A stretch of DNA of 64,000 bases from Quercus robur (lineage: Eukaryota > Streptophyta > Magnoliopsida > Fagales > Fagaceae), in contig NC_065535.1 in assembly GCF_932294415.1 (NCBI RefSeq), positions 14,589,282 to 14,653,281 on the forward strand, read 5' to 3'. Positions 10,736-45,285 of the stretch are shown here, piece by piece. The position numbers and the translations under genes were made by a program. Every line of letters starts with the position of its first letter. The first letter of the stretch is position 1. The notes under the pieces are model-generated. The model had not been told where the DNA came from. It made no database searches and saw only the letters and a program-made list of their open reading frames with translations.

Positions 10736-13700
10736 TTATGTCCTTCTACCTACAAGTGGAAGGATGAACCAAGTTACTCACGAGTATCTTGGTCGAAATT
10801 TAAGTCCTTCTACCTATGGGTGGAAAGACGAACCAAGCCACTCACAAGTGCCTTGGTCAAAATTTAAGTTTTCCTACCTAAGGGTGGGAGGATGAACCAA
10901 GCCACTCACAAGTGCCTTGGTACAGAATTTAAGTCTTTCTACCTACGAATGGGAGGACGAACCAAGTCACTTACGGGTGCAAGGACGAACCAAGTCACTT
11001 ACAGGTGCCTTGGTCAAAAATTTAAGTCTTCCTACCTTCAGGTGGAAGGACGAACAAAGCCACCAGCAAGTGTTTTGGTACAAAATTTAAGTCCTTCTAC
11101 CTACGGGTGGAAAAACGAACCAAGTCACTCACGAGTGTCTTGGTCGAAATTTAAGTCCTTCTACCAAAGGGTGGAAGGACGAACCAAGAAACTCACGAGT
11201 GCCTTAGTCAGAATTTAAGTCCTTCTACCTACAGGTGGAAGGACGAACCAATTCACTTACAGGTGCCTTGGTCGAAAATTTAAGTCTTTCTACCTACGGG
11301 TGGAAGGACAAACCAAGTCACTCACGAGTATCTTGGTCGAAATTTAAGTCCTACCTATTGGTGGAAGGACGAACCAAGTCACCTACAGGTGCCTTGGTTG
11401 AAGTTTAAAGTCCTACTACCTACGGATGGAAGGATTAACCAAGCCACCAGCAAGTGCCTTGGTACAAAATTTAAGTCCTTCTACCTACGGGTGGAAGGAC
11501 GAACCAAGCCACCAACAAGTGCCTTGGTCAAATTTTAAGTCTTGCTACCTAAGGGTGGGAGGATGAACCAAGCCACTTACAAATGCCTTGGTATAGAATT
11601 TAAGTCCTTCTACCTACGGGTGGAAGGACGAACCAACTCACTTACGGGTGCCTTGGTCGAAAATTTAGGTCTTCCTACCTAAGGATAGGAGGACGAACCA
11701 AGCCACGCACAAGTGCCTTGGTACAGAATTTAAGTCCTTTTACCTACAGGTGGAAGGACAAACCAAGTCACACACTAGTGTTTTGGTCGAAATTTAAGTC
11801 ATTCTACCTACGGGTGGAAGGACGAACCAAGCCACCAACAAGTGCCTTGGTCAAATTTTAAGTCTTGCTACCTAAGGGTGGGAGGATGAACCAAGCCACT
11901 TACAAATGCCTTGGTATAGAATTTAAGTCCTTCTACCTACGGGTGGAAGGACGAACCAACTCACTTACGGGTGCCTTGGTCGAAAATTTAGGTCTTCCTA
12001 CCTAAGGATAGGAGGACGAACCAAGCCACGCACAAGTGCCTTGGTACAGAATTTAAGTCCTTTTACCTACAGGTGGAAGGACAAACCAAGTCACACACTA
12101 GTGTTTTGGTCGAAATTTAAGTCTTTCTACCTACGGGTGGAAGGACGAACCAAGCCACCAACAAGTGCCTTGGTTAAAATTTAAGTCTTCCTACCTAAGG
12201 GTGGGAGGATGAACCAAGCCACTCACAAGTGCCTTAGTACAGAATTTAAATCCTTCTACCTATGGGTGGAAGGACTAACCAAGTCACTTACGGGTGCCTT
12301 GATCAAAAATTTAAGTCTTCCTACCTTCGGGTGGAAGAACGAACCAAGCCACCAGCAAGTGCCTTGGTACAAAATTTAAGTCCTTCTACCTATGGGTGGA
12401 AGGACGAACCAAGTCACTCACGAGTGTCTTGGTCGAAATTTAAGTCTTTCTACCTATAGGTGGAAGGACGAACCAAACCACCAACAAGTGCCTTGGTCGA
12501 AATTTAAGTCTTCCTACCTAAGGGTGGGAGGACGAACCAAGCCACTCACAAGTGCCTTGGTACAGAATTTAAGTCCTTCTACCTACGGGTGGAAGGATGA
12601 ACCAAGTCACTTATGGGTGCCTTGGTCGAAAATTTAAGTCTTCCTATCTAAGGGTGGGAGGACGAACCAAGCCACTCATAAGTGCCTTGGTACAGAATTT
12701 AAGTCGTTCTACTTATAGTGGAAGGACGAACCAAGTCACTTATGAGTGTCTTGGTCGAAATTTAAGTCCTACCTACGGGTGGAAGGACGAACCAAGTCAC
12801 CAACAAGTGCCTTGGTCAAAATTTAAGTCTTCCTACCTAAGGGTGGGAGGACGAACCAAGCCACTCATAAGTGTCTCGGTACAGAATTTAAGTCCTTCTA
12901 CCTATAGGTGGAAGGAAAAACCAAGTCACTCACGAGTGTCTTGGTCGAAATTTAAGTCCTTCTACCTATGAGTGGAAGGACGAACCAAGCCACCAACAAG
13001 TGCCTTGGTCAAAATTTAAGTCTTCCTACCTAAGGGTGGGAGGACGAACCAAGCCATTCACAAGTGCCTTGGTACAGAATTTAAGTCCTTCTACCTATGG
13101 GTGGAAGGACGAACCAAGTCACTTACGGGTGCCTTGATCGAAAATTTAAGTCTTCTTACCTTCGGTTGGAAGGACGAACCAAGCCACCAGCAAGTGCTTT
13201 GGTACAAAATTTAAGCCCTACCTACGGGTGGAAGGACAAACCAAGTCACTCACGAGTGTCTTAGTTGAAATTTAAGTCCTTCTACCTACGGGTGGAAGGA
13301 CAAACCAAGCCACCAACAAGTGCCTTGGTCAAAATTTAAGTCTTCCTACCTAAGGTTGGGAGGACGAACCAAGCCATTCACAATTGCCTTGGTATAGAAT
13401 TTAAGTCCTTCTACCTACAGGTGGAAGGACGAACCAAGTCACTCACGAGTGTCTTGGTCGAAATTTAAGTCCTTCTACCAATGGGTGGAAGGAAGAACCA
13501 AGTCACTCACGAGTGCCTTGTTCAAAATTTAAGTCTTCCTACCTAAGGGTGGGAGGACGAACCAAGCCACTTACAAGTGCCTTGGTACAGAATTTAAGTC
13601 TTACCTATGGGTGGAAGGACGAACCAAGTCACTTACTGATGCCTTGATCAAAAATGTAAGTCTTCTTACCTTCGGGTGGAAGGACAAATCAAGCCACCAG

Positions 13701-14690
13701 CAAGTGCCTTGATACAAAATTTAAGCCCTACCTACGAGTGGAAGGAAAAACCAAGTCACTCACGAGTGTCTTGGTCGAAATTTAAGTCCTTCTACCTACG
13801 GGTGGAAGGACGAACCAAGCCATCAACAAATGTCTTGGTTAAAATTTAAGTCTTCCTACCTAAGGTTGGGAGGACGAACCAAGCCACTCACAAGTGCCTT
13901 GGTACAGAATTTAAGTCCTTCTACCTACAGGTTGAAGGACGAATCAAGTCACTCACAAGTGTCTTAGTTGAAATTTAAGTCCTTCTACTAATAGGTGGAA
14001 GGACGAACCAAGTCACTCACGAGTGCCTTTGTCAAAATTTAAGTCTTCCTGCCTTCGATTGGAAAAACGAACCAAGCCACCAAAAAGTGTCTTGGGATAA
14101 AATTTAAGTCCTTCTACCTACGGGTGGAAGGACGAACCAAGTCACTCACGAGTGCCTTGGTCAAAATTTAAGTCTTCCTACTTTCGGGTGGAAGGATGAA
14201 CCAAGCCACTAGCAAGTGCTTTGGTACAAAATTTAAGTCCTTCTACCTACGGGTGGAAGGACAAACCAAGTCACTCACGAGTGTCTTGGTCGAAATTGAA
14301 GTTCTTCTACCTACGAGTGGAAGGACGAACTAAGTCACCTACGGGTGCCTTGGTTGAAGTTTAAAGTCCTACTACCTACGGGTGGAAGGACTAACCAAGC
14401 CATTAGCAAGTGTCTTGGTACAAAATTTAAGTCCTTCCACCTATAGGTGGAAGGATGAACTAAGTCACCCACAAGTATCTTGGTCGAAATTTAAGTCCTT
14501 TTACCTACGGTTGGAAGGACGAACCAAGTCACTCACGAGTGCCTTGTTGAAAATTTTAAGTCCTACTACCTACGGGTGGAAGGACCAACCAAGTCGCCCA
14601 CAAGTGCCTTGGTGAAAATTCGAAGTCTTCCTACCTACGGGAGGACAGACGAGCCATGACACCGAAAAGGGCCTTGGTCAAAATTTAAGT
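10735..14690 (+). repeat. Tandem array of ~65-bp units (~60 copies), two hairpins per unit
   Basis: The unit is roughly: AATTTAAGTC, CTTCTACCTACGGGTGGAAG, GACGAACCAAGTCACTCAC, GAGTGCCTTGGTCGA. Two segments are self-complementary: TCCTTCTACC with GGTGGAAGGA, and ACCAAG..CACTC with GAGTG..CTTGGT. Two variants of the first arm (CTTCTACC/GGTGGAAGG and CTTCCTACC/GGTGGGAGG) keep pairing. Unit length varies by a few bases and a few units are truncated. The ~323-bp block from ~11486 is repeated almost exactly from ~11809. Open frames of 60-124 codons reflect the repeat, not genes. The array sits just upstream of the polypurine tract and 3' LTR. Confidence 0.92.
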
Positions 14691-14819: not shown

Positions 14820-15305
14820 TGAAGAGGAAAAATTATGCATGACGGAGCTATCTAGACATAGGTGGCATGGACAGACGTGGCATGTACAGACCGAACGGTC
14901 ACGTGGCATCCAGCCCATTATTATGTGGTCTCCAAGGAACCATAAATGGAAAATACTTGCGACACACGATTAGCCTTGGTTTGTAGAATCCCAACATAAG
15001 TAGAATTCTAGAATATACACGCATTAATGAGTATCTTCCCCATAAGGAAAAGACTTGTTCCGCAAGTAAAGGAGTCTGGCCCTACGCGACTATAAAAACC
15101 CAAAGACCCTCAAGAAAAAGGTAAGCACAATTTCTCTAAAGCTCTTACTGTCTAACATTGTTGGAGCTCTCTTCTGACTTAACCTTCGGAGGGTCTTTGA
15201 CCTGTACCACACCGGTACTCTATGTAAGGTCTTTTTCTGTGTTGGGCAGGTCTGGTATCGAGTGTGTTGGAACCGTGTGGCTCACTGGTGATTTTTTCAA
15301 CATCA
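14820..15305 (+). mobile_element. 3' LTR of a 5'-truncated LTR retrotransposon
   Basis: Homologous to the solo LTR at 44734-45285. Shared features are the start (TGA..GG.AAAAAT.AT..TGACGGA), GGAAAATACTTGCGACACAC, a TATA region (CTATAAAAACCCAAAGACCC here, TATAAAAGCCCCAATACCCT there), ACCTT.GGAGGGT.TTTG, CACCACACCGGT.CTCT and CTCACTGGTGAT. It ends CATCA. No matching 5' LTR is found upstream, so only the 3' part of the element (roughly 9.9-15.3 kb) survives. No gag-pol domain remains. Confidence 0.75.
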
Positions 15306-17286: not shown

Positions 17287-19920
17287 TGTTGGAGTATTTT
17301 AATATTAAATAATTAAAATGTATAAATGTTACAATATAAGTGTAAAGATATGGAAGTGAATATGGAAGATGAGGAGTTAGTGAAAATGTTTAATCCCACA
17401 TTGAAAAGAAGAGAGACTATTTTATTCTTTTTAATCGTGGTGATTAATGGGCTAACATGAATTGTCTCAAATATTGGGCTAGATACGTGGGCAAGGGGAA
17501 GGTGAAGAGTGGAGGTATCACTACATCAGAATAATGGACCTAATTAATCAAAATAAATTGGATAGTAATTTAGTTCCTACCGATAAGATGAGTGAGGAAG
17601 AATATAGTCTCCATCAAGAAAAAATTGATAAGTATACAAAAGATGAATATAATTGTCGCTCTTATCTTTTGAATTTTCTTGCCGATCATTTCTATGATTA
17701 TTATGATACAACTTAATTGTCGCTCTTATCTTTTGAATTTTCTTGCCGATCATTTCTATGATTATTATGATACAACTTATAATTCCGCTAAGAAAATTTG
17801 AAAAGCTTTACAAAGCAAGTATGATACCAAGGAGGCGGGTGCAAAGAAGTATGCTGCTAGTAGATTTTTCTGTTATCAAATGGTGGATGGAAAATTAGTG
17901 GTGGATCAAGCATAAGACTTTCAAATGATCGTGGCAGAATTGAGATCCGAAGGCATAAAGATTGGAGACAATTTGGTGGTAGTTGGCATAATTGATAAAC
18001 TACTACAATCTTGGAGGGAGTTCCAAAAGATTTTGTTGCACAAACAAAAGGAGACATCCTTGGAGACTTTGATCACACGCATCCGTGTGGAGGAGGAGGC
18101 TAGAGGACAAGATGCACTCATGACACAAGAGAGCAATGGTAATTCCACCACAATGGTAAACCTTATTTCAGCCAATAATAATATGCCCAAAAATTATTTT
18201 CCTAGAAATGGTCAATTGAAGCCTAAAAAGAGAGCCTTTAAAAATAATAATAGGCCTCAAGGAAGGGGAAACCCAAATAAAAATTGCAATAAGAACCAAG
18301 GACCCCCCTTTACAAGATCAATTTAATAGATCCTGTTTTGTCTATGGCAAAAGTGGGCATATTGCTTGATTTTGCTAATTTCGGAAACGTGAATCTATCC
18401 CGCAAGCTAACATAACCGAAGAGCTTTTAGTAGCTATGATTACAGACATCAATATGGTGCAATACGTTGAAAGGTGGTGGACAGATTCTAGTGCTAATAG
18501 GCACATCTGCTATGACAAAAATTGATTCAAATTGTACACTCATTTTGAAGAAGAAAAAATTGTTATGCTTGGTGACTCTAGCAAAACCAAGGTTCTTGGG
18601 AGTGGTGAGGTTGAATTGCAATTCATTTCTGGACGCGTGCTAACATTGAAAGATGTTCTTTACACTCCGCCCATGAGGAAGAATTTGATGTCAAGTTTTT
18701 TGCTTAACAAGGCTGGCTTCAAGCAAATTATGGAATCTGATAATTATGTAATCACTAAAAATTGATTATTTGTGGGCAAGGGTTATGCTTGTGATGGAAT
18801 GTTTAAATTGAATGTTGAGAATAATAAAGCATCTACCAATTCAGTTTATATGCTTTCTTCTATTAATTTTTGGCATGCTCGTTTGTGTCATATAAATAGT
18901 AGATATGTGGGAATCATGAGTAATTTAGGATTAATTCCAAGACTGTCAAAAGATTTTGAAAAATGTGAAACTTGTAGACAAGCTAAGATTACAAAAAAGC
19001 CTCATAAAAGTGTTGTAAGAAATACCGAATTGCTTGAGTTAATTCACTCTGATTTATGTGAATTTGAGGGAATTTTAACTCGTTGAGGAAATAGATATAT
19101 TATCACTTTTATTGATGATTTCTAAAAATATACAATTATTTATTTGTTGAAAAATAAAAGTGATGCTTTTGAAAAATTTCAAGATTTTTTAAAAGAAATT
19201 GAAAATCAATTTGGTAGAAAAAAAAAAAAAAAAGAATAAGAAGTGATAGAGGCCGTGGGTATGAATCAAGTGCATTCAACTCATTTGTTCAGTCTTTATG
19301 AATTATCCATGAAACTACTGCACCATATTCACCTGCTTCTAATGGTGTGGCTGAAAGAAAAAAATAGAACTTTAATAGGGTGCTACATAAAAAGTCATAC
19401 AGCACACCTTTTGAGATGTGGAAAGGACATAAGCCAAATTTGGGATATTTGAGAATATGGGGTTGTCTTACTTATGTAAGGCTTACTGACCCTAAAATGC
19501 CTAAATTAGGTATAAGAGCTACTACCTGTACTTTTCTTGGTTATGCGATTAATAGTGCAGCCTATAGATTTTTTGATCTTGAAAACAAAATAATTTTTGA
19601 ATCTGGTGATGCAATTTTTCATGAAGAAAAATTTACTATTAAATTGAAAAATAGTGGGGGTGAAGAAAATATTTTGTCACAACCTTGTTCTTCTACTTCA
19701 CATCTACAAAATCAAGAAAATTTTGAAATGGAACCTAGAAGAAGTAAAAGAGCTAGAGTTGAAAATGATTTTGGTCCTGATTATTATGTTTTTAACATTG
19801 AGGAAAATCCCCAAAATTTAAAAGAGGCTTTAACATCACCTGATGCTATATTTTGGAAAGAGGTTGTAAATGATGAGATGGAATCTCTTATTTCTAATAG
19901 AACTTGGAAATTAGTAGATC
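17287..19920 (+). pseudogene. Degenerate, truncated Ty1/copia retrotransposon
   Basis: The start TGTTGGAGTATTTTAATA and 'AATCCCACATTG' look like copia LTR/leader sequence. Coding remains follow in order. Gag spans 17534-18326 (frames broken; ends in a basic region). A zinc knuckle at ~18335 reads CFVYGKSGHIA*FC, with one Cys and one Arg lost, both explicable by single C/G transitions. A protease region lies at ~18470-18760. GAG-pre-integrase is WHARLCHINSRY, followed by an integrase zinc finger. The integrase core has stops, a poly(A) expansion at ~19219 and a ~100-bp deletion between NRTL and HKKSYSTPFEMW. The N-terminus of reverse transcriptase ends at TWKLVDL. A perfect 64-bp tandem duplication (17651-17714, 17715-17778) shifts the gag frame. 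The rest of RT, RNase H and the 3' LTR are missing. Confidence 0.88.
17651..17778 (+). repeat. Perfect 64-bp tandem duplication in copia gag
   Basis: AATTGTCGCTCTTATC... to ...GATACAACTT occurs at 17651-17714 and again, identical, at 17715-17778. Since 64 is not a multiple of three it breaks the gag reading frame. Perfect identity in an otherwise decayed element implies a recent event. Confidence 0.95.
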
Positions 19921-20016
19921 TTGTGGTTGTGGTCGTGGTCGTGGGTTGCTAGATTTTGTGGTGGGTTCGGGTGTGGATGAGTTTGCAGTTGGCTTATGTT
20001 GGCTTTTAATGGTTTG
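19921..20016 (+). other. G/T-rich flank, likely part of a Harbinger-like element core
   Basis: Abrupt switch from copia coding sequence to GTGGTTGTGGTCGTGG-type sequence. The same composition resumes after the LTR element at 27988, so both pieces are probably one older element split by the LTR element. GTTTG at 20012-20016 is the left target-site copy. Confidence 0.45.
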
Positions 20017-20688
20017 TGTAAGGACTCAATTTGTAACGATCCCAAAACCAGTCTTGGGTTCGTACGTTAAAAGGCTCAAACAATATAATTTGTAGAGCGT
20101 GGGTTTGAAAGGCTTGGCCTTGATCATCGAACGGTGGTTAGTCATGGTATTCGTGGTGGACACACAGGGACGAGCCATGGTTGTCCATGGATCTTGCCTA
20201 TCCCGCCTTCTTTTTGGTGCCTAAGCCTTTACATTATATAACCCTTCACGGTTGATCCTGATCCTCCATCTGTTGATCAGGCAGGTACCTATTCGAATAC
20301 CTGTCCCATCAGCCGCCTCCCCCTACTTTCTGTTAGTTGCAACAATCGAAACCACACTGTTCAGGAGTCTTTTCCCATTAATATGGCCAGGACGTTTGTG
20401 GGCACATTCAATGCGGAGGTGACGTCTTTTCCTTGAACCACTCCTACTCTGTTCTCCCATGTGAGTCCCATTTTACTCGCCTTTTCTTCTGGGGGCGCTT
20501 CGGAGGCTGCCTTGGACGACATGCCTCTCTTCCCTTTGAAGTCTCGAGATGCCGAGGACAAGGTCATCCTCGGCTGCACCTCTAGGCTGTTTGGTCCTTC
20601 ACCACTCGTCCTCGGCAACTACTCTCCTCGGCATGGGCCCTGGGTCCTAATGGAAAGTGGGTCGGGTCATAAGTTCTCTGGCCCCACA
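20017..20688 (-). repeat. 3' LTR (left copy) of the Tat-like element
   Basis: Starts TGTAAGGACTC and ends GGCCCCACA as read on the plus strand. It contains ATTATATAAC, a near-palindromic TATA region usable on either strand, and could therefore also drive the antisense ORF that starts ~540 bases further on. Open frames inside it recur in the other LTR and are not genes. Confidence 0.85.
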
Positions 20689-21226
20689 ATAGCCCCTTAA
20701 AATCCTGCTATCCGGATCCTCGACCGGATAGGAGGGTTTTGATGACATCAGGCCTCTGTCAAAGCTTGTCAATCCTTGTCACCTATCGGTTCCCGAAACT
20801 CTTCGTCTGCCCGAGACACGTTCCTGGAGCCTTTGGAAGGTGAAACGTGTCCTCATTAAATGCAGGCGGCTCCGTGCTTCCCACGTTCAACGGCGCGATG
20901 GTGATCTAACGGTGGAGATTTCCTTGCCTTTATGGGCGGGAAAATTCGTGCAGTTATTTTCGATGGGAGGTATAAATGATTTTTGAAACTGATTTGTCTC
21001 TTCACTTTTGCACTTAAGAGTTCTAACGCGTATACCCTGGGTTCATCCAAACTTTTATCCAAATTCAAGTCTATCTCTAGCACAAAAAGCCTGTCCGAGG
21101 CACCTTTCCTCTTTTCTGTAAGTTCTCTGTTATCACTAACTCGTGCTTTTTCTTTTCTGAGTTTATTTTTCTCTTGTTCCTTTCCTTCTCCCGTCATCCA
21201 CTGAGTTTTCTTAGCAACTCTTAGAG

Positions 21227-23927
21227 ATGGTTAAATTGAAATTGAAAAAATTGGTTGATACTGAAGAGGCGATGGAAAAGTTCATCGCCAATTATAGGAT
21301 TCCCTCCAACGTGAGTTTGAGGCACTGTAAGATGGGGGAGTGGCATCTTCTGAGAAAGACGGGCGAGGTGGCAATTCTCATTCTCGCCTTTGTAGAGGGG
21401 GGTATGAGAATCCCCATGGGATCGGTAATGAAGAGTTACCTTAGGCATTTCGGATTAGCTCCCACCCAGTGCGCTGCCAATATGTTTAGGATTCTGGGTT
21501 GTGTGGATGCCTTGAACGAAAAAATGGGGCTAAGACTAACCCTTCATAACGTAAATTGGTGCTACAATCTCCAAAATTTGAATGGCAAATCTTACTACAT
21601 GAAGACGAGAGACGATAGGGTTCGGCTAATCCAGTGCCTTCCCAACTCCAAGAAAGGGTTGAACAAGGACTTTCTTATCGTATCCAGGGAATGGCATGAT
21701 GGCCTTCCATGCCCGATGGTGGAGGGAGAGCCAAGTGGGGTATAGAGAGTAGAAGGGTGCCAATCCTTTGCACCGTTTTAATATGATGCGGTTCGGTTAC
21801 TAACCATGTACATGTTTTTTTTTTTTTTTTGCAGATCCAAACGCCTTTCACCGACACTTTCATTTGGTTAACCGAGTTGATTTGGAAATTGTTCTTCAAG
21901 CGGCAGTTTTTGTAAATGAAGCGGATGGTCAAGTCAGAGCCGCTCACAAAATCTTAGGGTACACTCCCCTTTAGAAGTCATTTGCCGACCCAAAGCACGT
22001 GATCAGCGCTAACCGTCCTTGGCTTCCAAAAATTACCATAGTCGAACAAGGGTTTTTGATCTCTGAAGGATCTCCTATCCCAGAGGGCATCCCATTGGTA
22101 GGCTCTTCGTCGTCTCATCACGCAGCAGAGGACGAAGGTAATTTGGGTCAATCCGAGGAGGGTTTTGGGGCATTTGACCAAGCCGACCTATCCGAGGATC
22201 CTTCTGGTGATCTAGGTGATCCAGACTTGTCCGAAGCTAAACTGTTGTCAGTGGGAACATCCTCCCGAGCCAAGATGGGTCTTAAGAGAAAGCCCCCAAC
22301 CAGCCTGTTCGACCTCACTGAGGGCCAGCCGAGGAAGGGTGCACAGGGAAAACCGTAATCCAATGCTCCGTCTCCACTACCTCAGCCCCAGCTCGTCCAG
22401 ACCAGGTCATCCTCTACTAAGTCACAGCCACAATCTCCCGGCCCCAAACTTCCTGCTCCTCTTTAATCAGCTCTGCCTCCTCGGCCGGAGCCCACTGACT
22501 CAAAGAGAAAGAGGAGTCCCAAGGGGAAGGAACCCATGGATGGGGGAAAATCCCAATCCTCTTAGGAGAGGGATGAATCCCCGCGAGTTAAAAACAGTTA
22601 AAGATTGGGCACCAATGCAAGGGTAAAGGGATCGAAACCCAATCCGCCAAAAGCAAGGGGAAGGGGATCGAAGCCCAATCCGCGCCGAGCGCTTGACTTC
22701 TCGCCCCAATGCTCCACGGGGAGCCATTGCTGGAAACCGCATCCATGAGGGACCCTGGAGACGGCGATGGCGGTTATGTGGCCGACGCATTAGGGAGAAC
22801 CATGCTACTTCCTACTGATGTGGAAGAGTTAAAGAACATGAGGATGCATGATATTTTCCTTAGCGTGAAGAGGTACCTGGGTATGGTAAGACCCTTGAAA
22901 CCTAAGGCTCTGTCAATTCTGGCTCCTAGATTTTCATTCATAATATACTTGTCTCAATTGGCAAGCTATCTAGGCCACCTATAGGATGAAGGATGAAGTG
23001 AAGGGGCAGAGTAAGGCCGCCAAGGATGAACACACCAAACGTATAGATGCTGCGCGGACCCTCAAAGTTTCCGAGGCTGACCTCACAAAGGCTAGGGAGG
23101 ACTTAAAGGAGGCTACCCGAGAGAGGGATACTGCCTTGGCAGGGTTAACTGGTGCCCAAACACAGGCCGAGGAACAAACAAAGCACTTACTCGACGCCGA
23201 GGAGCAATTGCAGATAGCTAAGGAGCAAATCAGTGATTTGAAGAAGAAACTGATCATGGCAGAGAATGATAAGGGCGTGGCGGAGTTTGCCCGGGATGAA
23301 GCCGTGAGGGCCAAGCAGGAAGCTGAATTTGCCAGAAACGAGGCCGAAGCTGCTAGGGACAAGGCCGAGGAGGAGGGTTACGAGACGGGCATGGCTGAAA
23401 CCCAGGCCTCCCTTAAAGCTCAAATTCCTGGAGTATGCAGACTATACTGCTCCCAGGTTTGGGAAGAAGCCTTAAAACGAGCTGGGGTGGATGCTTCGTC
23501 TGATTTGTGGAAGGCGGAAAGCATATTTTATCCTCTAGCCATCCATGAGACCGCCTCCGCCAGCTCCGAGGCTATGAGCGATCAACACGAGGCAGAGGTT
23601 ATTCAGTCAGAAGATGCAAAGATCATCGTCTCTCCTAACGAGTCAATGGAAGGAGGAGAGCCTCATGATGCGATGGAAGCACCTGGAGGTATGAATCCTG
23701 AGATGCCCAAAGAGGGTGCCGAGCCTACGGTCAGCGCTCAGATCCCTGATGCTGAGGAGCCAGCCATCCTTGTTCAGCCCCTACAGGCAATTCCCCTTAC
23801 TGAGGTCCCCAAGAGCATCGAAACCGACTTTGCTCAGCCTTCCCAAGAAGGGGATGCCTCCCAGGGCCCCGAGGCTAGTCCTGCTCTGCCTTCCAAGGAC
23901 GTGGGCAAAACGACATTGAAGAAGTAG
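21227..23927 (+). pseudogene. Antisense additional ORF of the element: PF04195-like domain plus coiled coil
   Basis: The first piece, 21227-21745, reads MVKLKLKKLVDTEEAMEKF... through YRIPSNVSLR and NVNWCYNLQNL. It resembles the plant 'putative gypsy type transposon' domain (PF04195), which occurs in extra ORFs of Tat-lineage elements. An intron-like stretch with a T-run ending TTTGCAG at ~21836 follows. Coding resumes with DPNAFHRHFHLVNRVDL; the obvious GGG|GTATAG donor gives the wrong phase, so either another donor or an indel is involved. TAG at 21973 and further stops near 22357-22700 break the frame. The last part, 22986-23927, is open for 313 codons. It has a long Glu/Lys/Ala coiled coil (residues ~1-140), a conserved EEGYETGMAETQASLKAQ stretch, then an acidic/Pro-rich tail ending at a stop. 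It runs opposite to the element's transcription. Its function is unknown. Confidence 0.75.
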
Positions 23928-24300
23928 CAGCCCTGACCAACCTTCGTATTTGTTTCCAGTTTAATTATTTAACTAGTTTCCTTTTTGTTTTGAAAACCTT
24001 ATAGTTTGATTGCAGTGGAACTTATTAACGACATATATGAAATTCTTTTCTTCCTTTAAATTACATGTTAGTTGCCCTTACTAATGCTTACTATTGTTGC
24101 GGATCTCCTGATTTTTGAACTAGTTATTTTAACATGTATGAATGGTTGTGCATATGATATATTTAGGATCATATCCCGGAATTCTAACTTACCCGCGCCC
24201 ATAGGACGTTGAATTTGTGTCTGAACACACTTCTTGGGAGATATAGGCATCATCCAAGACGTCATGCATATTGTTAGGCCGAGCCTGGTATCTAGGTTTC

Positions 24301-27107
24301 CTTTAAGTAGTTGGTTTCCCCATAGGTTTGAGTTCGAGGACCATGCAATACCTTGGTTCTGCCCAAAACTTAGATATTTTCATTAAGTGGTTGGTTTCCC
24401 CATAGGTTTGAGTTCGAGGACCATACAATACCTTGGTTCTGTCCAAAACTTAGATTTCTTCATTAAATGGTTGGTTTCCCCATAGGTTTGAGTCCGAGGA
24501 CCATGCAATACCTTGGTTCTGTCCAAAACTTAGATATTTTCATTAAGTAGTTGGTTTCCCCATAGGTTTGAATCCGAGGACCATACAATACCTTGGTTCT
24601 GTCCAAAACTTAGATTTCTTCATTAAGTAGTTGGTTTCCCCATAGGTTTGAGTCCGAAGACCATACAATACCTTGGTTCTGTCCAAAACTTAGATATTTT
24701 CATTAAGTGGTTGGTTTCCTCATAGGTTTGAGTCCGAGGACCATGCAATACCTTAGTTCAGTCCAAAACTTAGATATTTTCATTAAGTAGTTGGTTTCCC
24801 CATAGGTTTGAGTCCGAGGACCATACAATACCTTGATTCTATCCAAAACTTAGATTTCTTCATTAAGTAGTTAGTTTCCCCATAGGTGTGAGTCCGAGGA
24901 CCATACAATACCTTGGTTCTGTCCAAAACTTAGATTTATTCACTAAGTGGTTGGTTTCCCCATAGGTTTGAATCCGAGGACCATGCAATACCTTAGTTCT
25001 GTCCAAAACTTAGATATTTTCATTAAGTGGTTGGTTTCCCCATAGGTTTGAGTCCGAGGACCATGCAATACCTTAGTTCTGTCCAAAACTTAGATATTTT
25101 CACTAAGTAGTTGGTTTCCCCATAGGTTTGAGTCCGAGGACCATACAATACCTTGGTTCTGTCCAAAACTTAGATTTCTTCATTAAGTAGTTGGTTTCCT
25201 CATAGGTTTGAGTCCGAGGACCATACAATATCTTGGTTCTATCCAAAACTTAGATTTCTTCACTAAGTGGTTGGTTTCCCCATAGGTTTGAATCCGAGGA
25301 CCATGCAATACCTTGGTTCTGTCCAAAACTTAGATATTTTCATTAACTAGTTAGTTTCCCCATAGGTTTGAATCTGAGGACCATGCAATACCTTGGTTCT
25401 ATCCAAAACTTAGATATTTTCATTAAGTAGTTGGTTTCCCCATAGGTTTGAGTCCGAGGACCATACAATACCTTGGTTCTGTCCAAAACTTAGATATTTT
25501 CATTAAGTGGTTGGTTTCCCCATAGGTTTGAGTCCGAGGACCATGCAATACCTTGGTTCTGCCCAAAACTTAGATATTTTCATTAAGTAGTTGGTTTCCC
25601 CATAGGTTTGAGTCCGAGGACCATACAATACCTTGGTTCTGTCCAAAACTTAGATTTCTTCATTAAGTGGTTGGTTTTCCCATAGGTTTGAATCCGAGGA
25701 CCATGCAATACCTTGGTTCTGTCCAAAACTTAGATATTTTCATTAAGTAGTTGGTTTCCCCATAGGTTTGAGTCCGAGGATCATACAATACCTTGGTTCT
25801 ATCCAAAACTTAGATTTCTTCATTAAGTGGTTGGTTTCCCCATAGGTTTGAATCCGAGGACCATGCAATACCTTGGTTCTGTCCAAAACTTAGATATTTT
25901 CATTAAGTAGTTGGTTTCCCCATATGTTTGAATCCGAGGACCATACAATACCTTGGTTCTGTCCAAAACTTAGATTTCTTCATCAAGTAGTTGGTTTCCC
26001 CATAGGTTTGAGTCTAAGGACCATACAATACCTTGGTTCTGTCCAAAACTTAGATATTTTCATTAAGTGGTTGGTTTTCCCATAGGTTTGAGTCCGAGGA
26101 CCATGCAATACCTTAGTTCAGTCCAAAACTTAGATATTTTCATTAAGTAGTTGGTTTCCCCATAGGTTTGAGTCCGAGGACCATACAATACTTTGATTCT
26201 ATCCAAAACTTAGATTTCTTCATTAAGTAGTTAGTTTCCCCATAGGTTTGAGTCTGAGGACCATACAATACCTTGGTTCTGTCCAAAACTTAGATTTATT
26301 CACTAAGTGGTTGGTTTCTCCATAGGTTTGAATCCGAGGACCACGCAATACCTTAGTTCTGTCCAAAACTTAGATATTTTCATTAAGTGGTTGGTTTCCC
26401 CATAGGTTTGAGTCCGAGGACCATGCAATACCTTAGTTCTGTCCAAAACTTAGATATTTTCACTAAGTAGTTGGTTTCCCCATAGGTTTGAGTCCGAGGA
26501 CCATACAATACCTTGGTTCTGTCCAAAACTTAGATTTCTTCATTAAGTAGTTGGTTTCCCCATTGGTTTGAGTTCGAGGACCATACAATATCTTGGTTCT
26601 GTCCAAAACTTAGATTTCTTCACTAAGTGGTTGGTTTCCCCAAAGATTTGAATCCGAGGACCATGCAATACATTGGTTCTGTCCAAAACTTAGATATTTT
26701 CATTAAGTAGTTATTTTTCCCATAGGTTTGAATCCGAGGACCATGCAATACCTTGGTTCTATCCAAAACTTAGATATTTTCATTAAGTAGTTGGTTTCCC
26801 CATAGGTTTGAGTCCGAGGACCATACAATACCTTAGTTCTGTCCAAAACTTAGATATTTTAATTAAGTGGTTGGTTTCCCCATAGGTTTGAGTCCGAGGA
26901 CCATGCAATACCTTGGTTCTGCCCAAAACTTAGATATTTTCATTAAGTAGTTGGTTTCCCCATAGGTTTGAGTCCGAGAACCATACAATACCTTGGTTCT
27001 GTCCAAAACTTAGATTTCTTCATTAAGTGGTTGGTTTTCCCATAGGTTTGAATCCGAGGACCATGCAATACCTTGGTTCTGTCCAAAACTTAGATATTTT
27101 CATTAAG
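24301..27107. repeat. 35 tandem 80-bp repeats with a 17-unit higher-order period
   Basis: The consensus unit runs CATTAAGTAGTTGGTTTCCC, CATAGGTTTGAGTCCGAGGA, CCATACAATACCTTGGTTCT, GTCCAAAACTTAGATTTCTT. Every unit is exactly 80 bp, with no net indel over 2.8 kb. Variant sites (GTAG/GTGG, AGTCC/AATCC, CATA/CATG, ATATTTT/TTTCTT) define unit types. Units 4-18 (24541-25740) correspond one to one with units 21-35 (25901-27100), an offset of 1360 bp or 17 units. They share rare variants such as GATTTATT, CCTTAGTTCA and CACTAAG, with ~26 differences in 1200 bp. The array occupies the place where gag-pol should be. Confidence 0.96.
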
Positions 27108-27297
27108 TTTGGGGGAACCAGCCCCTCGTCCCAGGTGTGGGACGTTGATTTGACGTTGGAAGCCCCAAGAACTGCCCGTGCCACTGGTACTTCAAAGCGC
27201 AGCCCCTAGTGGAACTTTACGTTAGGGCACAACAACGGACCATTGGTAGTGGTGAAGGGACTTTCTCGATCCACCGCTTGTGCCAACGCACAAGCCT

Positions 27298-27316
27298 CCC
27301 CACAAACGGCGCCAAT
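27298..27316 (-). other. Primer-binding site of the Tat-like element
   Basis: On the minus strand, directly inside the LTR, the sequence reads TTGGCGCCGTTTGTGGGGA. This resembles the TGGCGCCGTTGCCGGGGA type of primer site in Tat/Ogre-like elements. It fixes the element's orientation as minus. Confidence 0.65.
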
Positions 27317-27987
27317 TATAAGGACTCAATTTGTAACGATCCCAAAACCAGTCTTAGGTTCGTACGTTAAAAGGCCCGAACAATATAATTTGTAGAGCAT
27401 GAGTTTGAAAGGCCTGGCCTTGATCACCGAACGGTGGTTAGTCATGGTATTCATGATGGACACACAGGGACGAGCCATGGTTGTCCATGGATCTTGCCCA
27501 TCCCACCTTCTTTTTGGAGCCTAAGCCTTTACATTATATAGCCCTTCATGGTTGATCCTGATCCTCCATCTGTTGATCAGGCAGGTACCTATTCGAGTAT
27601 CTGTCCCATCAGCTGCATCCCCCTACTTTCTGTTAGTTGCAACAACCGAAGCCACACTGTTCAGGAGTCTTTTCCCATCAATATGGCCAGGACGTTTGTG
27701 GGCGCATTCAATGCGGAGGGACGTCTTTTCCTTGAACCACTCCCACTCTGTTCCCCCATGTGAGTCCCATTCTACTCGCCTTTTCTTCTGGGGGCGCTTC
27801 GGAGGTTGCCTTGGACGACATGCCTCTCTTCCCTTTGAAGTCTCGGGATGCCGAGGACAGGGTCATCCTCGGCTGCACCTCTAGGCTGTTTGGTCCTTCA
27901 CCACTCGTCCTTGGCAACTACTCTCCTCGGCACGGGCCCTAGGTCCTAATGGAAAGTGGGTCGGGTCATAAGTTCTTTGGCCCCACA
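27317..27987 (-). repeat. 5' LTR (right copy) of the Tat-like element
   Basis: Matches 20017-20688 end to end. Its outer edge at 27987 is followed by GTTTA. Because the element lies on the minus strand, this copy is the promoter LTR. Confidence 0.85.
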
Positions 27988-28409
27988 GTTTAGATTGGTG
28001 ATTAGTGGCGGTGTGCCAATTGGTGAAGAACATAGGTTTTGTGGGTTTGTGGTGGTGGATCGTGGCCGGTGGCAGATCGATGGTGGGTTTTGCCATGGAT
28101 TGGTTGTGAGTTGTGGGCTGGGTTGGGTTGACACAACAGTGAGTGGTGGTGATGGTGGTGGTGTCGTGAGGGGCTGTGGGTTGCAAAAAGGGAAGAGAGG
28201 GAGAAGACAGAGATAAAGATGAATAGTGAGAAAAAAATAATAAATAGGTGTTTATGGTATATATTATTTTATTATGATGTTTATATTATTTTATTGTATT
28301 AAAAGCTAAAATAGATCTACTGCTGCAACATGTGAGTAGGTAAAAAAGATAAAATAACTTTTTATGATGCCAAGTAGCTAAAATTGTAGCTCCACTACTT
28401 TGGATGCTC
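27988..28409. mobile_element. Right part of a GAGCAT-family Harbinger-like element
   Basis: A G/T-rich core (27993-28200) is followed by an AT-rich arm (ATATTATTTTATTGTATTAAAAGC, AGCTAAAATTGTAGCTCCAC) ending TTTGGATGCTC at 28409. The arm matches the minus strand of the intact copy's left arm at 34864. The left end is missing; 19921-20016 may be the core on the other side of the LTR element. Confidence 0.6.
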
Positions 28410-44733: not shown

Positions 44734-45285
44734 TGATAAGGGTAAAAATATAGCCTGACGGACCTCCTTTAAATGGGCTTGACGGATCCATGTTTGTGAG
44801 CCGATAGAAGGCAAGCCCAACTTGCGCAAATGCCCGTTATGGATAGATACAGCAGAAACCCCAGATGGAAAATACTTGCGACACACACTTAATTACTATA
44901 GAATCCCTAGGTAGATAGAATCCTAGCGTGAAGAGGATTCTGGAAGATACGCGCGTAAATAAAGATCTTCTCTACAAGAAAATGTCTTGTCCATCACGTT
45001 TGGGACTATTCAAGAGGATTCATATAAGGAAAAGACTTCTATGCCAAGGAAGAGAGACCAACTTTCTACTACTATAAAAGCCCCAATACCCTCACAAATC
45101 AAGGTACGCATAATTTACCATTCTCTATCACTCTAGAGTTGTGAGAATAGTTCTAACTTGACCTTTAGAGGGTATTTGGCCAGCACCACACCGGTGCTCT
45201 CTGTTAGGTCTTCTCTCTTTTCTGTGCAGATATCATTACGAGCGTGTAAGGATCGTGTAGCTCACTGGTGATATTTACAGTATCA
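44734..45285 (+). mobile_element. Intact solo LTR with 5-bp target duplication
   Basis: 552 bp with ends TGATA..TATCA, flanked by AATAA on both sides (44729-44733 and 45286-45290). Homologous along its length to the 3' LTR at 14820-15305. It contains CTATAAAAGCCCC (~45081) as a core promoter. Solo status implies recombination between two former LTRs of one insertion. Confidence 0.88.

What the first reader, a model, noticed from the sequence alone, without database searches (positions are those of the whole stretch)
24301..27107. 80-bp array with a 17-unit higher-order repeat and no indels
All 35 units are exactly 80 bp, and units 4-18 match units 21-35 one to one, including rare variants (GATTTATT in units 8 and 25; CCTTAGTTCA in 6 and 23; CACTAAG in 9/11/13 and 26/28/30). 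I count ~26 differences in 1200 bp (~2.2%) between the two blocks. This is centromere-satellite-like higher-order structure inside a single retrotransposon copy. It indicates a 1360-bp unequal exchange or replication-based duplication. The strict 80-bp length suggests either selection on phasing or homogenisation that rejects indels.
Basis: seen in the sequence. Interest (0 to 1): 0.78.

Follow-up and report, generated by a model that had tools for sequence, protein, structure and literature searches.

The report
Retand-like retrotransposon with duplicated repeat array
A plant jumping gene carries 35 copies of an 80-letter repeat, and fifteen neighbouring copies are a near-duplicate of fifteen others; repeat arrays of this kind are a known trait of this group of elements, and such doubling is what uneven copying or exchange within an array can produce.

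Summary
The array at 24303-27108 has 35 units of exactly 80 bp and no indels. Units 17 apart differ at 2.06 of 80 positions on average; other lags with ten or more pairs give 5.1-6.6. Units 4-18 and 21-35 differ at 26 of 1200 positions; no random unit order did as well (0 of 20,000).

The host is one 7.97-kb LTR retrotransposon on the minus strand (20017-27987). No gag or pol was found in the ORFs scanned. It carries an antisense ORF with a weak Transposase_28 match. This is the published Retand/Tat layout, where tandem arrays with 8-100-bp units and antisense Transposase_28 ORFs are common (PMC11963269).

Best reading: a homology-guided duplication of 15-17 units, at about the time of insertion or later. 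Constant length needs no selection by the LTRs' own indel rate (one per 32 substitutions). A second array in the window also has higher-order structure. Other genomic copies could not be examined, because the genome search did not complete. Centromere-like behaviour, phasing selection and satellite seeding are unsupported. Ordinary, with one tidy molecular record.

The parts
20017..20688 (-). 3' LTR (element is on the minus strand)
   Evidence: Self-BLAST pair 20019-20688 / 27319-27987, 95.1% identity; ends read from the sequence
27317..27987 (-). 5' LTR
   Evidence: 32 substitutions and one 1-bp indel in the aligned core (668 columns)
20012..20016 (.). Target-site duplication, left copy (GTTTG)
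   Evidence: Read; the right copy GTTTA is at 27988-27992, 4 of 5 bases match
27988..27992 (.). Target-site duplication, right copy (GTTTA)
   Evidence: Read
27297..27314 (-). Putative primer-binding site (begins TGGCGCC), 2 bases after the 5' LTR
   Evidence: Read; the link of such sites to tRNA primers in gypsy elements is recalled
20689..20703 (-). Putative polypurine tract next to the 3' LTR (contains AAGGGG)
   Evidence: Read by eye
24303..27108 (+). Tandem array: 35 units of exactly 80 bp plus six bases
24543..25742 (+). Block 1 of the duplication (units 4-18)
   Evidence: 26 differences in 1200 from block 2
25903..27102 (+). Block 2 of the duplication (units 21-35)
25743..25902 (+). Units 19-20 between the blocks; closest consecutive pair is units 17-18 (3 differences in 160), then 12-13 and 34-35 (4 each)
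   Evidence: 2-unit matches are not significant by permutation (677 of 1000 as good)
21227..21745 (+). Antisense ORF with Transposase_28 (TRP28, PF04195) similarity; apparently followed by an intron
   Evidence: E 3.4e-5, 24.4 bits, curated cut-off 26.2; intron judged by eye
22986..23927 (+). Antisense 313-aa ORF, coiled-coil-like by eye, no Pfam family at E 0.001

Best explanation
This is the internal tandem-repeat array of a non-autonomous Retand-like (Tat) Ty3/gypsy retrotransposon. SHOWN: an LTR element on the minus strand with a 5-bp target-site duplication (4 of 5 bases), a TGGCGCC primer site, no gag/pol in the ORFs scanned, plus-strand (antisense) ORFs one of which resembles Transposase_28, and a 35 x 80-bp array between the primer site and those ORFs. 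SHOWN: units 4-18 and 21-35 are copies of one another. INFERRED: an array of about 18 units was enlarged by one homology-guided step shifted by 15-17 units. The step was either unequal sister-chromatid exchange or gene conversion after insertion, or a template jump between co-packaged RNAs during the reverse transcription that made this copy. Because each step is guided by pairing between units, it adds whole 80-bp units and leaves no indels. INFERRED: in this family the array is a by-product of repeat instability; no function of the array itself is shown.
For: LTRs, target site and primer site. TRP28-like antisense ORF. 0 of 8 minus-strand (sense) stop-to-stop ORFs of 70 aa or more in 20689-27318 had a Pfam match at E 0.1. 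The published Retand survey describes antisense TRP28 ORFs in 97% of its clusters, non-autonomous members, and tandem arrays with 8-100-bp units and up to 85 copies that vary in number among copies of one cluster (PMC11963269: abstract, passages and section 11). Duplication signal 0 of 20,000 permutations. Timing: block divergence relative to LTR divergence, corrected for cytosine context, is 0.73 (95% 0.42-1.24) with all changes and 0.59 (0.32-1.06) with transitions only, so the duplication is unlikely to be much older than the insertion. Simulated neutral duplication and deletion gives such arrays often when exchanges may span the array: 42% of 135 and 34% of 50 accepted arrays.
Against: The Transposase_28 match is below Pfam's curated cut-off, and the lineage is defined by reverse transcriptase, which was not found. 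Derived changes are unequal between the blocks (6 in block 1, 18 in block 2, 2 ambiguous; p = 0.023), which a simple duplication does not predict. Transversions are over-represented in the array (8 of 26) compared with the LTRs (2 of 32), p = 0.032. Transversions alone give an age ratio of 2.23 (0.56-14.7), possibly older than the insertion. With array 2's indel-to-substitution ratio (0.13 gap runs per substitution from non-independent pairs), zero indels among the 36 distinct derived states of array 1 would be unlikely (about 0.008 by my arithmetic). Simulations with short exchanges (geometric, mean 3 units) almost never gave the pattern (1% of 90), so a large step is required. In 8 of the 12 simulation settings too few arrays (0-3 of 150) met the acceptance limits to be counted. 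Confidence is set at 0.72 rather than the 0.82 I first wrote, only so that it adds up with the rivals; no fact changed it.
Confidence: 0.72

Rival explanations
1. Assembly artefact: the two blocks are the two haplotypes' arrays wrongly joined end to end, so the genome really has a single array of about 18 units at this locus.
For: The 2.2% block divergence is a plausible level for allelic difference in an outcrossing plant (recalled). The junction falls inside a tandem repeat, where assemblers can fail (recalled). The unequal private changes (6:18) could fit two haplotypes of different history.
Against: The blocks abut in exact 80-bp register with no extra bases, and the sequence just outside the array has no second copy in the window. 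The differences are substitutions only, unlike long-read errors (recalled). No reads were available, so this was not tested directly.
Confidence: 0.1
2. Ongoing centromere-like homogenisation or selection on an 80/160-bp phase keeps units at constant length and creates a true higher-order repeat.
For: Two linked unit types exist: G7-G43-A74 in 14 of 35 and A7-A43-T74 in 13 of 35. No length variant is present.
Against: Only two blocks. Secondary block matches within units 1-20 do not beat permutation (677, 443 and 100 of 1000 as good for 2-, 3- and 4-unit windows). The LTR indel rate already predicts few indels. No clear RNA structure signal (z -0.10 to -1.91 in six folds; 8 to 87 of 200 shuffles as good), no Rfam family, and no significant dyad symmetry.
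Confidence: 0.04
3. The duplication is old and was inherited from the parental element, so many copies share it.
For: The transversion-only age ratio is above 1 (2.23, 95% 0.56-14.7). The whole-ratio interval reaches 1.24.
Against: Overall block divergence is lower than LTR divergence (26/1200 vs 32/668, p = 0.003; 37/1440 vs 32/668 with all 18 pairs, p = 0.012; both uncorrected).
Confidence: 0.14

Closest known systems
Retand lineage of Tat Ty3/gypsy retrotransposons (PMC11963269: abstract, passages and section 11 read; PMC7264820: passages read; Kejnovsky et al. 2006 seen only as a cited reference)
   Same: LTR of about 671 bp (reported 315-1194), antisense Transposase_28-like ORF, an internal tandem array with a unit within 8-100 bp and a copy number below 85; non-autonomous members are reported
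   Different: Here no gag/pol was found, so the array follows the leader; each cluster in that paper's Table 1 keeps some gag-pol domains
Hypervariable 3' UTR tandem repeats of Tat/Ogre elements and satellites derived from them (PMC7004042: passages and sections 8 and 10 read; Macas et al. 2009 seen only as cited there)
   Same: Short arrays within Tat elements, also in non-autonomous elements lacking pol; abnormal strand transfer between co-packaged copies is a cited hypothesis for their origin
   Different: For the nine Ogre-derived satellites in that paper the monomer was the longest period seen (arrays over 30 kb); higher-order repeats were seen in another satellite. Here a 17-unit offset exists in a 2.8-kb embedded array
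[quoted passage not shown]
   Same: Similar unit length and element class, by its title
   Different: Sequence not compared; the paper was not found in the library search
CRM1TR/CRM4TR tandem repeats from maize centromeric retrotransposons (PMC3648361: passages, incl. most of the abstract, read)
   Same: Tandem repeat arising from a gypsy element; internal repeats with composite pairs of alternating units
   Different: The unit there includes LTR sequence; a different lineage with centromeric or pericentromeric location

Membership tests
LTR retrotransposon | Paired LTRs, target-site duplication, PBS and PPT | tested here: met
   TSD 4 of 5 bases, PBS TGGCGCC; PPT short and judged by eye
Retand lineage (Tat, Ty3/gypsy) | Antisense ORF with Transposase_28 (PF04195) | tested here: inconclusive
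   E 3.4e-5, 24.4 bits against a cut-off of 26.2; orientation antisense as expected. Reported in 97% of clusters in PMC11963269 and in 23% of Retand elements in PMC6317226 (passages)
Retand lineage (Tat, Ty3/gypsy) | Reverse-transcriptase phylogeny (the formal definition) | not testable with these tools
   No RT domain found in this element, and other copies could not be searched
Retand lineage (Tat, Ty3/gypsy) | Tandem array in the long internal region (about half of members) | tested here: met
   35 x 80 bp; position relative to pol cannot be judged without pol
Retand lineage (Tat, Ty3/gypsy) | Target-site duplication length and primer-site type of the lineage | tested here: inconclusive
   5 bp with one mismatch; PBS not matched to a tRNA, and the lineage's own type was not looked up
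Satellite DNA | Long free-standing arrays outside the element | not tested
   Own-genome search did not complete; 0 exact matches of one 25-base stretch in genome contigs and viral contigs, collections of prokaryotes and viruses
Centromeric higher-order repeat | Multimer reiterated many times with high identity | tested here: not met
   Only two blocks, 2.2% apart

The most novel reading that the evidence does not exclude
The array is an early satellite caught at its first large step. A single template jump during the reverse transcription that made this very insertion doubled an array of about 18 units. The two blocks and the two LTRs would then share a birthday, and each such element copy would carry its own dated expansion event, so the question of whether Tat arrays grow in the particle or on the chromosome could be settled by comparing block and LTR ages across many copies.
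Probability: 0.2. Interest if true: 0.45.

Novelty: new member of a known kind. Interest (0 to 1): 0.2.

Why it matters
Tandem arrays inside Tat elements are a known source of plant satellite DNA, and how they arise is stated to be undetermined (PMC7004042, section 10). A large duplication inside an element whose LTRs give its insertion date lets the two ages be compared, which separates growth during replication of the element from growth on the chromosome. One copy is not enough to decide (age ratio 0.42-1.24), but the test is simple to repeat on many copies.

Tried and rejected
Clean in-situ dating: the crude figures (2.17% block vs 4.79% LTR, p = 0.003) suggested a duplication after insertion. 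After correction for CG/CHG/CHH context the ratio interval includes 1, so I do not claim it.

A two-step history (15-unit duplication plus a copied pair, units 17-18 to 19-20): suggestive markers exist (C60 only in units 1, 16 and 33; units 1-3 vs 16-18 differ by 2, 2, 3), but secondary matches are not significant by permutation. Left open.

Palindromic or structured unit: the fold looked symmetric, but alignment to its own reverse complement was no better than shuffles (680 of 2000 as good; ungapped dyad 1047 of 2000). Rejected.

Homology between the 80-bp unit and the 64/65-bp unit of array 2: forward score reached by 55 of 500 shuffles, reverse by 11 of 500, in stretches of 13-14 bases only. 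Rejected as unproven.

Rfam: no match at gathering threshold in 20000-28000. Coding: one search listed 18 stop-to-stop ORFs of 70 aa or more (8 minus, 10 plus). All 8 minus-strand ones were scanned and had no Pfam match at E 0.1; of the 10 plus-strand ones I scanned 5 and left out 5. Shorter or frame-broken remnants were not examined.

Literature: six answered searches did not list a title or abstract start about a 15-17-unit duplication inside a Retand array. I read parts of five papers only, so this is no claim that none exists.

Full report
What was checked. Tandem Repeats Finder gives one array here, 24303-27108, period 80, 35.1 copies, 0% indels. I cut 35 units from 24303 and compared all pairs. 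Lag 17 has a mean of 2.06 differences per 80 positions over 18 pairs; every other lag with ten or more pairs lies between 5.09 and 6.56. The named rare variants pair as stated. The first three lag-17 pairs (1/18, 2/19, 3/20) are looser, with 5, 4 and 2 differences.

The host element. A self-comparison with the arrays masked shows one strong direct pair around the array, 20019-20688 and 27319-27987, 95.1% identical. Read from the minus strand these are LTRs of about 671 bp starting TGTGGGGCC. They are flanked by GTTTG on the left and GTTTA on the right as a 5-bp target-site duplication with one mismatch. A TGGCGCC primer site follows two bases after the right-hand LTR, and a short purine tract lies before the left-hand one. 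So the element is on the minus strand, 20017-27987, and the array lies about 190 bp downstream of the primer site.

What it encodes. The longer open frames lie on the other strand: a 172-aa ORF (21227-21745) matching Transposase_28, PF04195, at E 3.4e-5 but just under Pfam's cut-off (24.4 vs 26.2 bits), and a 313-aa coiled-coil-like ORF (22986-23927) without a Pfam family. All 8 minus-strand stop-to-stop ORFs of 70 aa or more listed between the LTRs gave no Pfam match at E 0.1, so no gag or pol was found; shorter or frame-broken remnants were not examined. Antisense Transposase_28 ORFs, tandem arrays with units of 8-100 bp and up to 85 repeats, copy numbers that vary within a cluster, and non-autonomous members are described for the Retand lineage (PMC11963269; abstract, passages and section 11 read). 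The element is best called Retand-like and non-autonomous. Membership cannot be proved without a reverse transcriptase.

Timing. The LTR pair has 32 substitutions and one 1-bp indel in 668 aligned columns, 30 of the 32 being transitions. The blocks have 26 of 1200, 18 of them transitions. Uncorrected, the blocks are younger (p = 0.003; with all 18 pairs, 37 of 1440, p = 0.012). The LTRs are richer in CG and CHG sites, and with context classes the ratio of block to LTR divergence is 0.59 (0.32-1.06) for transitions, 2.23 (0.56-14.7) for transversions and 0.73 (0.42-1.24) for all. The duplication is therefore probably about as old as the insertion or younger. Against a simple story, private changes are unequal (6 vs 18, 2 ambiguous, p = 0.023) and transversions are in excess in the array (p = 0.032). 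I cannot explain these and they may be chance.

Constant length. The LTRs give one indel with 32 substitutions, so zero among the 26 block differences is unremarkable (probability 0.45). Using the indel ratio of array 2 (0.13 gap runs per substitution in non-independent pairs) would make it less expected. Steps guided by homology keep the register, so no selection on phase is required. Folding, Rfam and dyad tests of the unit gave nothing clearly beyond chance; the strongest fold was a 150-base minus-strand stretch, z -1.91, 8 of 200 shuffles as good.

Is it special? A neutral simulation with block duplications and deletions of any size up to the array length gave an equally strong single lag in 42% of 135 and 34% of 50 accepted arrays; with geometric sizes of mean 8, 13% of 120; with mean 3, 1% of 90. 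The other 8 of 12 settings gave too few accepted arrays to count. A large step is needed, but nothing beyond that. In the same window a second array (60 of 61 units of 61-65 bp and one of 28; anchors 10765-14650) has its own higher-order pattern, best at lag 5 with lags 8, 21 and 13 close behind (0 of 2000 permutations). Higher-order structure is thus shared by both large arrays seen here.

What could not be done. The own-genome search was asked eight times and not answered, and the genome was not available as a file, so other copies, free-standing arrays and the species remain unknown. Two public collections, of prokaryotes and of viruses, have no exact match of a 25-base stretch. A haplotype-join artefact remains possible.

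Verdict. The thing is a known kind: a Tat/Retand-like internal tandem array with one large duplication.

Noticed in passing
10765-14650: A second, more diverged tandem array with 61-65-bp units (one of 28) and clear higher-order structure: best lag 5, with lags 8, 21 and 13 nearly as good. Lags that are sums of 5 and 8 suggest two nested duplications.
   Followed up: partly
21740-21834: The antisense Transposase_28 ORF seems to continue across a short intron: a long pyrimidine run ends in gcag at 21834, and the donor is uncertain, near 21740. Judged by eye.
   Followed up: no
14935-15305 and 44854-45285: Two copies about 67-70% alike with a TATA-like stretch; they look like LTRs or solo LTRs of one family, the first close to the end of array 2.
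   Followed up: no
17650-17779: A perfect 64-bp tandem duplication just before a copia-like region (gag-related ORF at 17925-18326, integrase-related SH3-like ORF at 19380-19952).
   Followed up: no
24303-27108: Two linked unit types (G7/G43/A74 and A7/A43/T74) cover 27 of 35 units, hinting at an older 160-bp dimer.
   Followed up: partly
25903-27102: Block 2 carries three times as many private changes as block 1 (18 vs 6), with most of the transversions; unexplained.
   Followed up: partly
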